Positions 40,929-43,499 of a stretch of 64,000 bases of DNA are shown here, piece by piece. Made by a program: the position numbers and the translations under genes. The DNA is from Cytophagales bacterium (GTDB lineage: Bacteria > Bacteroidota > Bacteroidia > Cytophagales > Cyclobacteriaceae). Location of the stretch: positions 1 through 64,000 of the forward strand of contig JAFLBQ010000004.1 in the NCBI GenBank assembly GCA_017303805.1, given 5' to 3'. Positions within the stretch are counted from its first letter, which is position 1, and each line of letters begins with the position of its first letter. The notes below the pieces were generated by a model that worked only from the letters and a program-made list of their open reading frames with translations, had not been told where the DNA came from and searched no databases.

Positions 40929-41444
40929 ATGGAACTATCGCAAGCAATTCAACTGATAGAAAAAGGTGTTGCCGCCACACCCAACCAACAGTGGGCCGAC
41001 CTGGGTGCTGGCCAGGGTTTTTTTAGCCAGGCGCTCGCTCAATTGCTGCCTTCCGGAAGTATTACCGCTATCGATCAGGACATACATGCACTGAACGCCA
41101 TCGTGTGGAAGTCGGACACGGTGACCCTTACCAGGCTACCTGCCGATTTTAGTACCTACTCGTGGCAACGCAATTTTAATGGATTTCTTATTGCCAATGC
41201 ACTCCATTATGTACCTGAACCGGCTACTTTACTAAAGCGATTGAAAAAACAACTGCTTCCCGATGGCCGCATACTAGTAATTGAATACGATACCGAAATT
41301 AGCAATGCCTGGGTTCCGTACCCGATCTCTTTTAAGAAATTACAAGCCGTTGCGGCCGTGGCCGGTTTACCTACAGTAACTTTTCTACACCGGGTTAATT
41401 CAACCTACCAGACTGGTGGCATCTATGCCGCCCGGCTTACTTAA
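40929..41444 (+). CDS. class I SAM-dependent methyltransferase
   Basis: A 171-residue Rossmann-fold methyltransferase. The SAM motif is WADLGAGQGFFSQALAQ with the acidic strand ITAIDQD; the third motif is LIANALHYVPEP. It lacks a fused substrate domain, so the substrate is unknown. Its 3' end overlaps by 4 nt the 3' end of the convergent STING-like gene. Confidence 0.88.
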   Translation: MELSQAIQLIEKGVAATPNQQWADLGAGQGFFSQALAQLLPSGSITAIDQDIHALNAIVWKSDTVTLTRLPADFSTYSWQRNFNGFLIANALHYVPEPATLLKRLKKQLLPDGRILVIEYDTEISNAWVPYPISFKKLQAVAAVAGLPTVTFLHRVNSTYQTGGIYAARLT

Positions 41445-42133
41445 GCATCGCCATCAAAAACAAGTGTAAGATTTTTGTCAACAAAGAAAACATACTCGGT
41501 TAAGTCGCGGGCAACCAGTAATTTTTCAATTACCTGTTTAAATTTTACAATGTATTCTTTGGCCATCTCTTCGCGAATGGAATCAGCGAACCTGTTCTTA
41601 CGCGATTCCATTTTGTAATCTATCAAACTATTCAGGCTTAAGAGGGTGTTGGGAAAATCGAAGTACACGCGTTTATTTCCATTCCCGGTAACGGTTAATA
41701 TATCGCGTGCACGACCCTCCTGAAATTCGAGGTTTACGATTTTGTCTTCAAAACTCATCATTCTTATTTTCCCGATAACGCGTTCGATATTGCGCGGCTC
41801 CAATTCCGAAAGCTTGGAAGGGATGTAGATGAACAGGCGTGGCTTGGGGCTGCCCAACGGAATCTGCTTCATCAATTGCGAGATAAGCGGTTCTACAAAA
41901 TTATGTACGTATCCATATGCCAGGGCATACGGCAAAGAGAACTCTTCCTCTGCGAGGCGCGAACCAAACTCACTTACCAAGGCGGTAACGGCTGTGGATA
42001 TTAATCCTAACACCACAGTTATCGGCTCCGGATCGAAGGGTGCTTGCTTCCAAAACAGCCAGCATAACGCCACAGCCAGAGTAGCAAGCCAAAGCACTAC
42101 CACCAGCCCTTTAGAAATAAATTGGAGTTTCAT
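41441..42133 (-). CDS. probable transmembrane STING-domain protein (prokaryotic TM-STING)
   Basis: A 230-residue protein with two membrane helices (about 9-28 and 37-55) and a cytosolic C-terminal domain of about 165 residues. ALAYGYVHNFVEPL (70-83) fits the opening helix of prokaryotic STING domains, and YFDFPNTL (157-164) matches the D-x-P-x-T guanine-contact motif (Asp159, Pro161, Thr163). Arg141 and Arg143 lie 18 and 16 residues earlier, near the spacing of the ligand arginine in bacterial STINGs. If correct, it binds cyclic di-GMP or a related dinucleotide and acts at the membrane. No CD-NTase is adjacent. A hairpin separates it from the upstream amidohydrolase, so it is likely monocistronic. 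Confidence 0.72.
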   Translation of the reverse strand: MKLQFISKGLVVVLWLATLAVALCWLFWKQAPFDPEPITVVLGLISTAVTALVSEFGSRLAEEEFSLPYALAYGYVHNFVEPLISQLMKQIPLGSPKPRLFIYIPSKLSELEPRNIERVIGKIRMMSFEDKIVNLEFQEGRARDILTVTGNGNKRVYFDFPNTLLSLNSLIDYKMESRKNRFADSIREEMAKEYIVKFKQVIEKLLVARDLTEYVFFVDKNLTLVFDGDA

Positions 42134-42165
42134 TTAGAGTTTAAAATATCTAACATTGATTAACA

Positions 42166-42193
42166 AGAAGGCAGGTCTTTCAACCTGCCTTCT
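42166..42193. terminator. hairpin terminator after the amidohydrolase
   Basis: AGAAGGCAGGT (42166-42176) pairs perfectly with ACCTGCCTTCT (42183-42193) over a 6-nt loop. A clear T run is missing on either strand. It lies 26 nt after the amidohydrolase stop, 33 nt before the STING-like start. Confidence 0.7.
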
Positions 42194-42218
42194 GTTTACA
42201 TCTATACATATCACTCTA

Positions 42219-43499
42219 TTATTCATTCTTATAAACTACACCATCTTTCATTACAAACACCACCTTTTCCATTACTTTAATATTTTTGGTTGGGTCTTCA
42301 TCCACCGCCACAATATCAGCCAACTTACCTTTTTCTATCGACCCCAGTTTATCGCCCATGCCCAGAATATCTGCGTTTACCTGCATGGCGCTTAGCAACG
42401 CCTCGATGGCCGGCATGCCGGCTTCTACCATATAACCAAACTCACGCGCATTTTCACCGTGTGGAAACACCCCGGCATCGGTACCAAACGCAATCTTCAC
42501 TCCGCGCTTATAGGCTTTGCCAAAATTCTCTTGAATCTTGGAACCGATCTCAAGCGCCTTTGGCACCACCAGCGGATGGTAGTAGCCGGGTATTTTGGCA
42601 TACTCGGCTGCCGAACGACCGGCAATAATAGTAGGAACATGGTACGTTCCTTTCTGCTTCATTAAATCCATTACTTCTTCGTTCATTAACGTTCCATGTT
42701 CTATGGTTGTAATGCCTGCCAATACCGCACGCTTCATACCTTCGGCACCGTGCGCATGAGCCGCAGAGTGAAATCCATAATCTTTTGCCGCTTCTACAAT
42801 CGCATTTACTTCTTCTTGTGTAAACTGCGGGCCGCTTCCATCTTTTGCTACACTCAGCACACCACCCGTTGCTGTTATTTTTATAAAATCTGCACCATCT
42901 TTATAGCGTTGGCGTACGGCCTTGCGCGCATCATCGGGGCCGTTAATTACACCTTCTTTTGCACCGGGGTCGCCCATCAAATCTTTGCGCGCACCATTGG
43001 TCGGGTCGCCATGGCCACCGGTAGTTGCAATGCCTTTACCGGCAGTAAAAATGCGTGGCCCTACAATCGTGCCGGCATTCACCGCATTGCGCAGCGAAAT
43101 ATTTACACCCGAGCCACCACAGTCGCGCACAGTTGTAAAACCGGCCAACAAACTTTTGCGGGCATAAATGGTTGATTGAAACGCTACATCGGCTTCGTTT
43201 TGGGTGTAACGTTTTACCAGGGCATCTTTGCTCGTTTCGCTTTCAATGTGCACATGCATGTCAATCAATCCGGGCATCACGGTCTTCTTGCTCAGATCAA
43301 TCAGCTTGTCATCTTTACCGGGTTTGGTAAAGCCCTTATCAACCGAAATTATTTTGTTGCCTTCTACAACAATGGTAACCTGGCTTTGCAGGTTCTTTGT
43401 TTTGCCATCCAGCAAAGTGCCGCAATGAATAAATGTTTTTTGTGCGAAGCACAGGCCACTAAGACCAACAAAAAGCAGGGTAGTATAAAATTTACGCAT
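42219..43499 (-). CDS. secreted metal-dependent amidohydrolase
   Basis: A 426-residue TIM-barrel amidohydrolase with a signal peptide ending in LCFAQ. Metal ligands are visible: HVH in PGLIDMHVHIES, the bridging carboxylated Lys in DFIKITATGG, His in SAAHAHGAEG and TTIEHG, and Asp in FGTDAGVFPHG. It resembles the Xaa-Pro/Xaa-Arg dipeptidase branch (Sgx9260/Cc2672-like) and imidazolonepropionase relatives. The likely substrate is an N-acyl amino acid or dipeptide. The TerB-like gene lies 12 nt upstream, so the two are probably an operon. Confidence 0.88.
   Translation of the reverse strand: MRKFYTTLLFVGLSGLCFAQKTFIHCGTLLDGKTKNLQSQVTIVVEGNKIISVDKGFTKPGKDDKLIDLSKKTVMPGLIDMHVHIESETSKDALVKRYTQNEADVAFQSTIYARKSLLAGFTTVRDCGGSGVNISLRNAVNAGTIVGPRIFTAGKGIATTGGHGDPTNGARKDLMGDPGAKEGVINGPDDARKAVRQRYKDGADFIKITATGGVLSVAKDGSGPQFTQEEVNAIVEAAKDYGFHSAAHAHGAEGMKRAVLAGITTIEHGTLMNEEVMDLMKQKGTYHVPTIIAGRSAAEYAKIPGYYHPLVVPKALEIGSKIQENFGKAYKRGVKIAFGTDAGVFPHGENAREFGYMVEAGMPAIEALLSAMQVNADILGMGDKLGSIEKGKLADIVAVDEDPTKNIKVMEKVVFVMKDGVVYKNE

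What the first reader, a model, noticed from the sequence alone, without database searches (positions are those of the whole stretch)
41441..42133. Orphan transmembrane STING-like receptor
The gene encodes two N-terminal TM helices plus a domain with the opening helix pattern of prokaryotic STINGs, a D-x-P-x-T motif at residues 159-163 and arginines 16 and 18 residues before it. Bacterial STINGs known to me sit beside CD-NTase genes in CBASS anti-phage islands. Here both neighbours are metabolic (a methyltransferase and an amidohydrolase), and the gene is set apart by a hairpin. Either a defence receptor has lost its cyclase, or STING is used in housekeeping cyclic-di-GMP sensing in this lineage. 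The second would be new.
Basis: partly seen in the sequence, partly recalled or inferred. Interest (0 to 1): 0.88.

Follow-up and report, generated by a model that had tools for sequence, protein, structure and literature searches.

The report
STING receptor gene without its cyclase
A bacterium carries a membrane-bound relative of the immune receptor STING but none of the searched-for enzymes that make its usual signal, so it may answer to an everyday cell messenger or to a signal from a source not yet recognised.

Summary
The 230-aa protein at 41441-42133(-) is a STING: Pfam prok_STING E=6.9e-17, 36% identity to FsSTING 6wt4, and the 39 best Foldseek matches are all STINGs.

It is an orphan at genome scale. 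The 99.99%-complete genome gives no match for SMODS, two PADLOC cyclase models, a profile of ten CD-NTases, or GGDEF, but has one diadenylate cyclase domain.

It belongs to a supported clade of ten (96/95) in at least five genomic contexts, none with a CD-NTase found beside it; its nearest tree neighbour of known context does have one (L191). Synonymous sites are saturated while the protein stays 93-94% identical, so it is not decaying.

Best reading: a CBASS TM-STING (Cap13) type effector, cut loose from its cyclase and kept as a single-gene cyclic-dinucleotide receptor. c-di-AMP is the only such messenger whose synthase I found, but ligand and output are inferred, and a solo defence effector is almost as likely. 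Housekeeping c-di-GMP sensing is not supported. New variant of a known kind.

The parts
41441..42133 (-). orphan transmembrane STING (TM-STING/Cap13-like), 230 aa
   Evidence: Pfam PF20300 E=6.9e-17; phmmer 6wt4 E=5.8e-25; Foldseek 6wt4 E=5.0e-9
41972..42133 (-). N-terminal membrane anchor, residues 1-54: two hydrophobic segments about 9-28 and 38-54
   Evidence: hydropathy; model helices 2-27 and 36-56, low confidence
41468..41941 (-). STING cyclic-dinucleotide-binding domain, residues 65-222
   Evidence: PF20300 match at residues 69-202; 6wt4 match at 62-222
41645..41713 (-). pocket motifs R141-x-R143 (lid, 'class II' RXR) to D159-x-P-x-T163, residues 141-163
   Evidence: alignment to FsSTING R151/R153/D169/T173; R141, R143, D159, P161, T163 invariant in 10 of 10 orphans
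42161..42198 (-). inverted repeat between amidohydrolase stop and STING start, perhaps the amidohydrolase terminator
   Evidence: not listed by the simple terminator scan
40929..41444 (+). flanking methyltransferase-domain gene, convergent, fast evolving; context, not a partner
   Evidence: Pfam; 46-56% identity to its counterparts
42219..43499 (-). flanking amidohydrolase gene; context, not a partner
   Evidence: Pfam PF01979 E=3.4e-53; one or more other ORFs lie between it and STING in G268, G310 and G314

Best explanation
A single-gene, membrane-anchored cyclic-dinucleotide receptor descended from a CBASS TM-STING (Cap13) type effector that became separated from its CD-NTase, most simply once before the ten-member orphan clade diversified, and has since been kept by selection on its own. 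Shown here: STING domain, intact class II (RXR) pocket, two hydrophobic segments, no CD-NTase beside it, no CD-NTase or GGDEF protein detected in this genome, monophyly of the ten orphans, strong conservation. Inferred: the direction of the change, the inner-membrane topology with the STING domain in the cytoplasm, dimerisation, binding of a 3'3'-cyclic dinucleotide, side-by-side oligomerisation, and a resulting rearrangement of the membrane helices that changes permeability or signals. Most likely ligand, also inferred: c-di-AMP from the housekeeping diadenylate cyclase, the only known cyclic-dinucleotide synthase domain found in the genome among those searched.
For: Family. Pocket residues Y75, N78, F79, R141, R143, D159, T163 identical in 10 of 10 orphans. 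Orphan clade support 96/95, joined with FsSTING and L191 at 87/92. No CD-NTase match among the ORFs of the nine fetched neighbourhoods of the other orphans, L031-L039, 6.7-20 kb each; the same search finds an adjacent CD-NTase in 5 of the 9 other short-STING loci examined (L040-L043, L191; not L044, L045, L192, L193). Own genome negative for SMODS, PDLC00815, PDLC00807, profile A2 and GGDEF, positive for DAC. In the two orphan genomes with a CD-NTase elsewhere (G310, G024) that cyclase sits with its own phospholipase effector and E2. Amino-acid identity 93-94% with synonymous differences saturated (pS 0.75-0.90, pN 0.044-0.051). A bacterial STING can bind c-di-AMP (8hwj; PMC10739871, passages).
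Against: Ligand: all seven pocket residues are identical to FsSTING, crystallised with 3'3'-cGAMP, and the RAR lid is also that of L191, which has a CD-NTase next door, so nothing in the pocket says that the ligand changed when the cyclase was lost. MySTING (class I) does not bind c-di-AMP (PMC8748872, passages); ElSTING binds it without activating its TIR domain (PMC10739871; PMC12421889), and its determinants T172/A176 correspond to P82/Q86 here (my mapping). DAC is in 18 of the 19 STING genomes searched, CBASS ones included, so its presence is not specific to the orphans. Distribution is patchy (8 of 62 genomes of the genus) and partly at odds with rpoB, more usual for defence genes. No output partner is identified. 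Unusual synthases (mCpol, Cas10) were not searched.
Confidence: 0.38

Rival explanations
1. Solo defence effector: it is still an abortive-infection membrane effector, triggered by c-di-GMP or 3'3'-cGAMP made by a synthase not recognised here (divergent host enzyme, phage- or co-element-encoded enzyme, a CBASS cyclase acting in trans, or uptake from neighbours).
For: Pocket identical to FsSTING, crystallised with 3'3'-cGAMP, and lid identical to the CD-NTase-linked L191; patchy distribution and likely transfer between lineages: STING of G024 is 81% identical while that of same-genus G336 is 49%, yet rpoB says the reverse, 88.7% against 92.1%; G310 and G024 do hold a CD-NTase elsewhere.
Against: 8 of 10 orphan genomes, the window's among them, have no CD-NTase by profile A2 (G379 and G387 of these are only 73% and 78% complete); the two that do have it coupled to a phospholipase effector; conservation at the level of the best-kept genes of the locus is unusual for an arms-race gene. 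No relative in the phage and plasmid collections by tblastn nor in viral contigs, where only two peptide patterns were used.
Confidence: 0.37
2. Repurposed STING fold that no longer binds a cyclic dinucleotide and acts as a membrane scaffold or binds another small molecule.
For: No matching synthase for the expected ligand found in the genome; clade-specific invariant residues in the membrane part (L14, W15, P35-E36-P37, T39, S46, T50) absent from four CD-NTase-linked TM-STINGs.
Against: All seven pocket residues compared are invariant over the clade although overall identity falls to about 45%.
Confidence: 0.17
3. Decaying remnant of a CBASS island.
For: No CBASS gene among the neighbours tested; absence in G347 and G343 shows that it is dispensable.
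Against: Intact frame in 10 of 10 genomes, pN 0.044-0.051 with synonymous sites saturated, five different contexts.
Confidence: 0.03

Closest known systems
FsSTING, Flavobacteriaceae sp. (PDB 6wt4), class II
   Same: 57 of 158 residues identical; F92/R151/R153/D169/T173 all matched; on the neighbouring branch with L191
   Different: described as a CBASS STING, crystal with 3'3'-cGAMP (PMC8748872, passages); the window gene has no CD-NTase. That full-length FsSTING carries TM helices is partly recalled (PMC10732462 speaks of Flavobacteriaceae TM-STINGs).
L191 (genome G453): TM-STING with adjacent CD-NTase
   Same: two hydrophobic segments, RAR lid, D-x-P-x-T
   Different: directly beside a CD-NTase; another family of the class
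Cap13-like STINGs L014, L015, L017, L018
   Same: short STINGs (213-234 aa) with a weaker hydrophobic N-terminus
   Different: beside a CD-NTase and a gene of the same cluster as the E2 confirmed in L042; H where the orphans have R143
ElSTING, Epilithonimonas lactis (8hwj), c-di-AMP-bound bacterial STING
   Same: STING fold (Foldseek E=2.0e-5); precedent for c-di-AMP in a bacterial STING pocket
   Different: TIR-fused, R-x-F lid, in a c-di-GMP CBASS operon (PMC10739871, PMC12421889, passages)
Metazoan STING
   Same: membrane helices plus STING domain
   Different: four TM helices; a published analysis treats the bacterial two-helix TM-STING as convergent (PMC10732462, passages)

Membership tests
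Prokaryotic STING (PF20300) | profile match above the curated cut-off | tested here: met
   62.2 bits against 27.1
Prokaryotic STING (PF20300) | STING fold | tested here: met
   Foldseek: best 39 matches all STING, 6wt4 TMt 0.77; the model is weak, mean pLDDT 59.8, so sequence evidence carries the weight
Prokaryotic STING (PF20300) | pocket residues: stacking F/L, lid R-x-(R/Y/F), D, T | tested here: met
   F79, R141, R143, D159, T163
Prokaryotic STING (PF20300) | V-shaped dimer that binds a cyclic dinucleotide and forms filaments | not testable with these tools
   needs protein
TM-STING / Cap13 | two N-terminal transmembrane helices in place of TIR | tested here: met
   hydropathy: both segments reach 1.6 in the window's protein; in 8 of 10 orphans both do, in L020 and L022 the second reaches 1.48 and 1.59
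TM-STING / Cap13 | groups with TM-STINGs in a tree | tested here: met
   with FsSTING and the two-segment L191 at 87/92; deeper joins, L014-L018 included, are unresolved
CBASS system | CD-NTase gene in the same operon | tested here: not met
   neighbours; none in the genome
CBASS system | anti-phage activity | not testable with these tools
   needs bench work
c-di-GMP housekeeping signalling (GGDEF-based) | a GGDEF diguanylate cyclase in the genome | tested here: not met
   the same search matches 8 of 14 control genomes
c-di-AMP signalling | a diadenylate cyclase in the genome | tested here: met
   PF02457 at G000:C3:12750-13103, E=5.6e-40
c-di-AMP signalling | this protein binds c-di-AMP | not testable with these tools
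   needs binding assay

The most novel reading that the evidence does not exclude
STING used outside immunity: a single-gene, membrane-bound c-di-AMP receptor, domesticated from a CBASS effector, which reports the housekeeping c-di-AMP level to the membrane, much as animal STING sits in membranes and reads cyclic dinucleotides.
Probability: 0.3. Interest if true: 0.87.

Novelty: new variant of a known kind. Interest (0 to 1): 0.62.

Why it matters
Bacterial STINGs are described as CBASS effectors paired with a cyclase that makes c-di-GMP or a related dinucleotide, and the function of the transmembrane ones is stated to be unclear (PMC10732462, PMC12421889, passages). A conserved clade that lives without a neighbouring cyclase gives a natural, genetically simple case in which to ask what a TM-STING does by itself, and whether the STING fold moved from immunity to housekeeping signalling in bacteria. 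It also tests how an immune effector can be kept safely once its trigger is gone.

Tried and rejected
GGDEF/c-di-GMP housekeeping sensing: no GGDEF match in the genome. CBASS cyclase elsewhere in the genome: three models plus profile A2 negative. A2 is not blind: it found the G310 cyclase, missed by PDLC00815 and PDLC00807, the G024 cyclase (itself a row of A2), and a distant one in G343 at 1.6e-10. Partnership with the flanking genes: five contexts with different neighbours. Mobile-element cargo: no relative in plasmids or phages, none in viral contigs by a scan with two peptide patterns. DeaD_dimer match (E=0.0027, under its cut-off): taken for chance. A second structure job on the STING domain alone was not run.

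Weak spots: the AlphaFold model is poor (pLDDT 59.8, seven similar sequences). The rpoB tree uses 52 of the 58 genomes that matched, of 70 asked: six partial matches (G375, G349, G358, G318, G362, G365) and a second G356 fragment were left out; 12 genomes, G044, G379 and G387 among them, gave no match. Within the eight-member clade the branching is open, so 'loss in G347/G343' is the simplest reading, not proof. STING tree: unrooted, deep joins weak, long branches flagged.

Full report
What is there. The ORF at 41441-42133(-) encodes 230 aa. Pfam gives one match above cut-off, prok_STING PF20300, 62.2 bits, E=6.9e-17, residues 69-202. phmmer against the PDB gives a single match up to E=1, 6wt4 (FsSTING), E=5.8e-25, residues 62-222, 57 of 158 aligned residues identical. 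NCBIfam gives nothing for it; PADLOC gives only the C-terminal part of a TIR effector model. An AlphaFold model from seven sequences is weak (mean pLDDT 59.8), yet Foldseek ranks 39 STING chains first, 6wt4 at the top (E=5.0e-9, TMt 0.77), among them bacterial STINGs bound to c-di-GMP and to c-di-AMP (8hwj).

Anatomy. Two hydrophobic segments, about residues 9-28 and 38-54, precede the STING domain; no other stretch reaches the same hydropathy. Pocket residues align one to one with FsSTING: Y75/Y88, N78/N91, F79/F92, R141/R151, R143/R153, D159/D169, T163/T173. By the published scheme, RXR in the lid makes it class II, the class whose one structure then available holds 3'3'-cGAMP; class I, RX(Y/F), is c-di-GMP specific (PMC8748872, passages).

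Neighbourhood. The gene lies alone: it converges on a methyltransferase gene with a 4-base overlap, and an 88%-complementary inverted repeat separates it from the amidohydrolase upstream.

Relatives. PF20300 matches 33 of 390 sampled genomes of the family and 16 of 395 sampled from the class. In the genus it is in 8 of 62 genomes. The six named near relatives are metagenome assemblies labelled Cyclobacteriaceae (four), Cytophagales and Bacteroidetes. In a tree of 34 STINGs, ten of 220-265 aa form one clade, support 96/95: eight of the genus plus G024 and G044. With FsSTING and L191 they form a clade at 87/92; how this joins the other STINGs is unresolved. L191 is a two-segment TM-STING with the same RAR lid. 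A 104-aa fragment in G058 (4.3-kb contig) was not placed.

No cyclase beside any of them. I fetched 12-20 kb around eight of the nine others (6.7 kb, a whole contig, for G379) and searched their ORFs with four CD-NTases: no match in L031-L039. The same search found an adjacent CD-NTase in five of nine other short-STING loci, L040-L043 and L191, and none in L044, L045, L192 and L193. In L042 the PADLOC scan also names an E2, and L040, L041 and L043 have a gene of the same cluster. The orphans occupy at least five contexts: the window's locus (five genomes), one shared by G336 and G379, and one each in G387, G024 (next to EF-G) and G044.

No known source of c-di-GMP or cGAMP found in this genome. 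It is 99.99% complete and gives no match for SMODS, PDLC00815, PDLC00807, a profile of ten CD-NTases (A2) or GGDEF. Over the ten orphan genomes, A2 finds a CD-NTase in two, G310 and G024, each in a cassette with its own phospholipase effector and E2. G024 also has a marginal PDLC00807 match (E=7e-4) inside a 1004-codon frame, which I take for chance. GGDEF appears in one of the ten, G379, a fragmented 73%-complete assembly; contamination is possible and was not tested. A diadenylate cyclase domain is found in nine of the ten (all but G379), the window's genome included. The nine other STING genomes tested also lack GGDEF and have DAC, so those two facts are not special to the orphans; the missing CD-NTase is.

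Selection. Between the window and four syntenic relatives the STING is 93-94% identical, the adjacent methyltransferase 46-56%, the amidohydrolase 89-91% (three of the four; not in the stretch fetched for G274), and other shared genes range from 37% to 98%. Synonymous differences are saturated (pS 0.75-0.90) with pN 0.044-0.051; dN/dS itself cannot be computed for these pairs. For the close pair G268/G310 dN is 0.009 and dS 0.46. All seven pocket positions are invariant in the ten, and so are several positions in the membrane part that differ in four CD-NTase-linked TM-STINGs.

Gain and loss. In an rpoB tree of 52 genomes the five genomes with the gene at the window's locus and three without it (G316, G347, G343) form one clade, 99/96. 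In G347 and G343 the methyltransferase and amidohydrolase lie side by side with no STING between them and no remnant by tblastn; G343's amidohydrolase is seen only in part, at a contig end. The site in G316 was not examined. Single-gene loss is the simplest reading. The STING of G024 (another genus) is closer to the window's (81%) than that of same-genus G336 (49%), against the rpoB order (88.7% and 92.1%), so transfer between lineages is likely. No relative was found in plasmids or phages, nor in viral contigs with two peptide patterns.

Reading. Most simply, a CBASS TM-STING type effector separated from its cyclase once, and the single gene was then maintained, moved and occasionally lost; the tree is unrooted, so the direction is inferred. 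Shown: family, architecture, pocket, lack of partner, monophyly, conservation. Inferred: membrane topology, dimerisation, ligand-driven oligomerisation, effect on the membrane. Ligand: c-di-AMP is the only cyclic dinucleotide whose synthase domain I found. Precedent: ElSTING binds it, and that paper cites DisA genes linked to STING genes (PMC10739871, passages; the cited paper is not held). Against: the pocket is the same as in FsSTING and the lid the same as in the cyclase-linked L191, MySTING does not bind c-di-AMP, and ElSTING forms filaments with it but is activated by c-di-GMP. I therefore give the c-di-AMP reading, mechanism included, 0.38 and a solo defence effector with an unrecognised trigger 0.37.

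What is known. TM-STINGs are known, with two helices, named Cap13, function unclear (PMC10732462, passages; PMC12421889, passages). My searches for orphan or cyclase-free bacterial STINGs listed no paper whose title or abstract start describes such a clade; subscription papers, including the original bacterial STING paper (recalled), were not available, so 'not in print' is not claimed.

Noticed in passing
L037:9210-12253 (genome G387): Beside this genome's orphan STING start three consecutive ORFs of about 330 aa; the first (the only one scanned) is an ion-channel protein with TrkA_N and TrkA_C domains. TrkA_C/RCK_C is a known c-di-AMP receptor domain (recalled; KtrA is cited in PMC10739871). 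One genome of ten, so possibly coincidence.
   Followed up: no
L049:9045-10109; L201:9164-10282: STING domains with a nucleoside-2-deoxyribosyltransferase-like N-terminal part (matches below the curated cut-off) and no CD-NTase recognised nearby: further candidate orphan STINGs of another architecture.
   Followed up: partly
L044:9566-10237; L045:2939-3610; L192:9322-9918: Other short STINGs (198-223 aa) without the RXR lid or D-x-P-x-T motif; the first two have one hydrophobic segment, the third none; no CD-NTase recognised nearby.
   Followed up: partly
L043:3545-6704 (genome G199): A TM-STING with two different CD-NTase genes, one on each side, and a gene of the E2 cluster.
   Followed up: no
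window 40929-41444: The methyltransferase-domain gene beside the STING evolves very fast (46-56% identity) in a locus where many genes stay near 80-90%.
   Followed up: no
L031:7865-9843; L032:10733-12715: In two relatives (G268, G274) an extra response-regulator/histidine-kinase pair sits directly upstream of the STING in the same direction.
   Followed up: no
L063-L065 (genome G379): Three GGDEF matches in the one fragmented orphan-STING assembly, while the 18 other STING genomes searched have none; contamination suspected, not tested.
   Followed up: no
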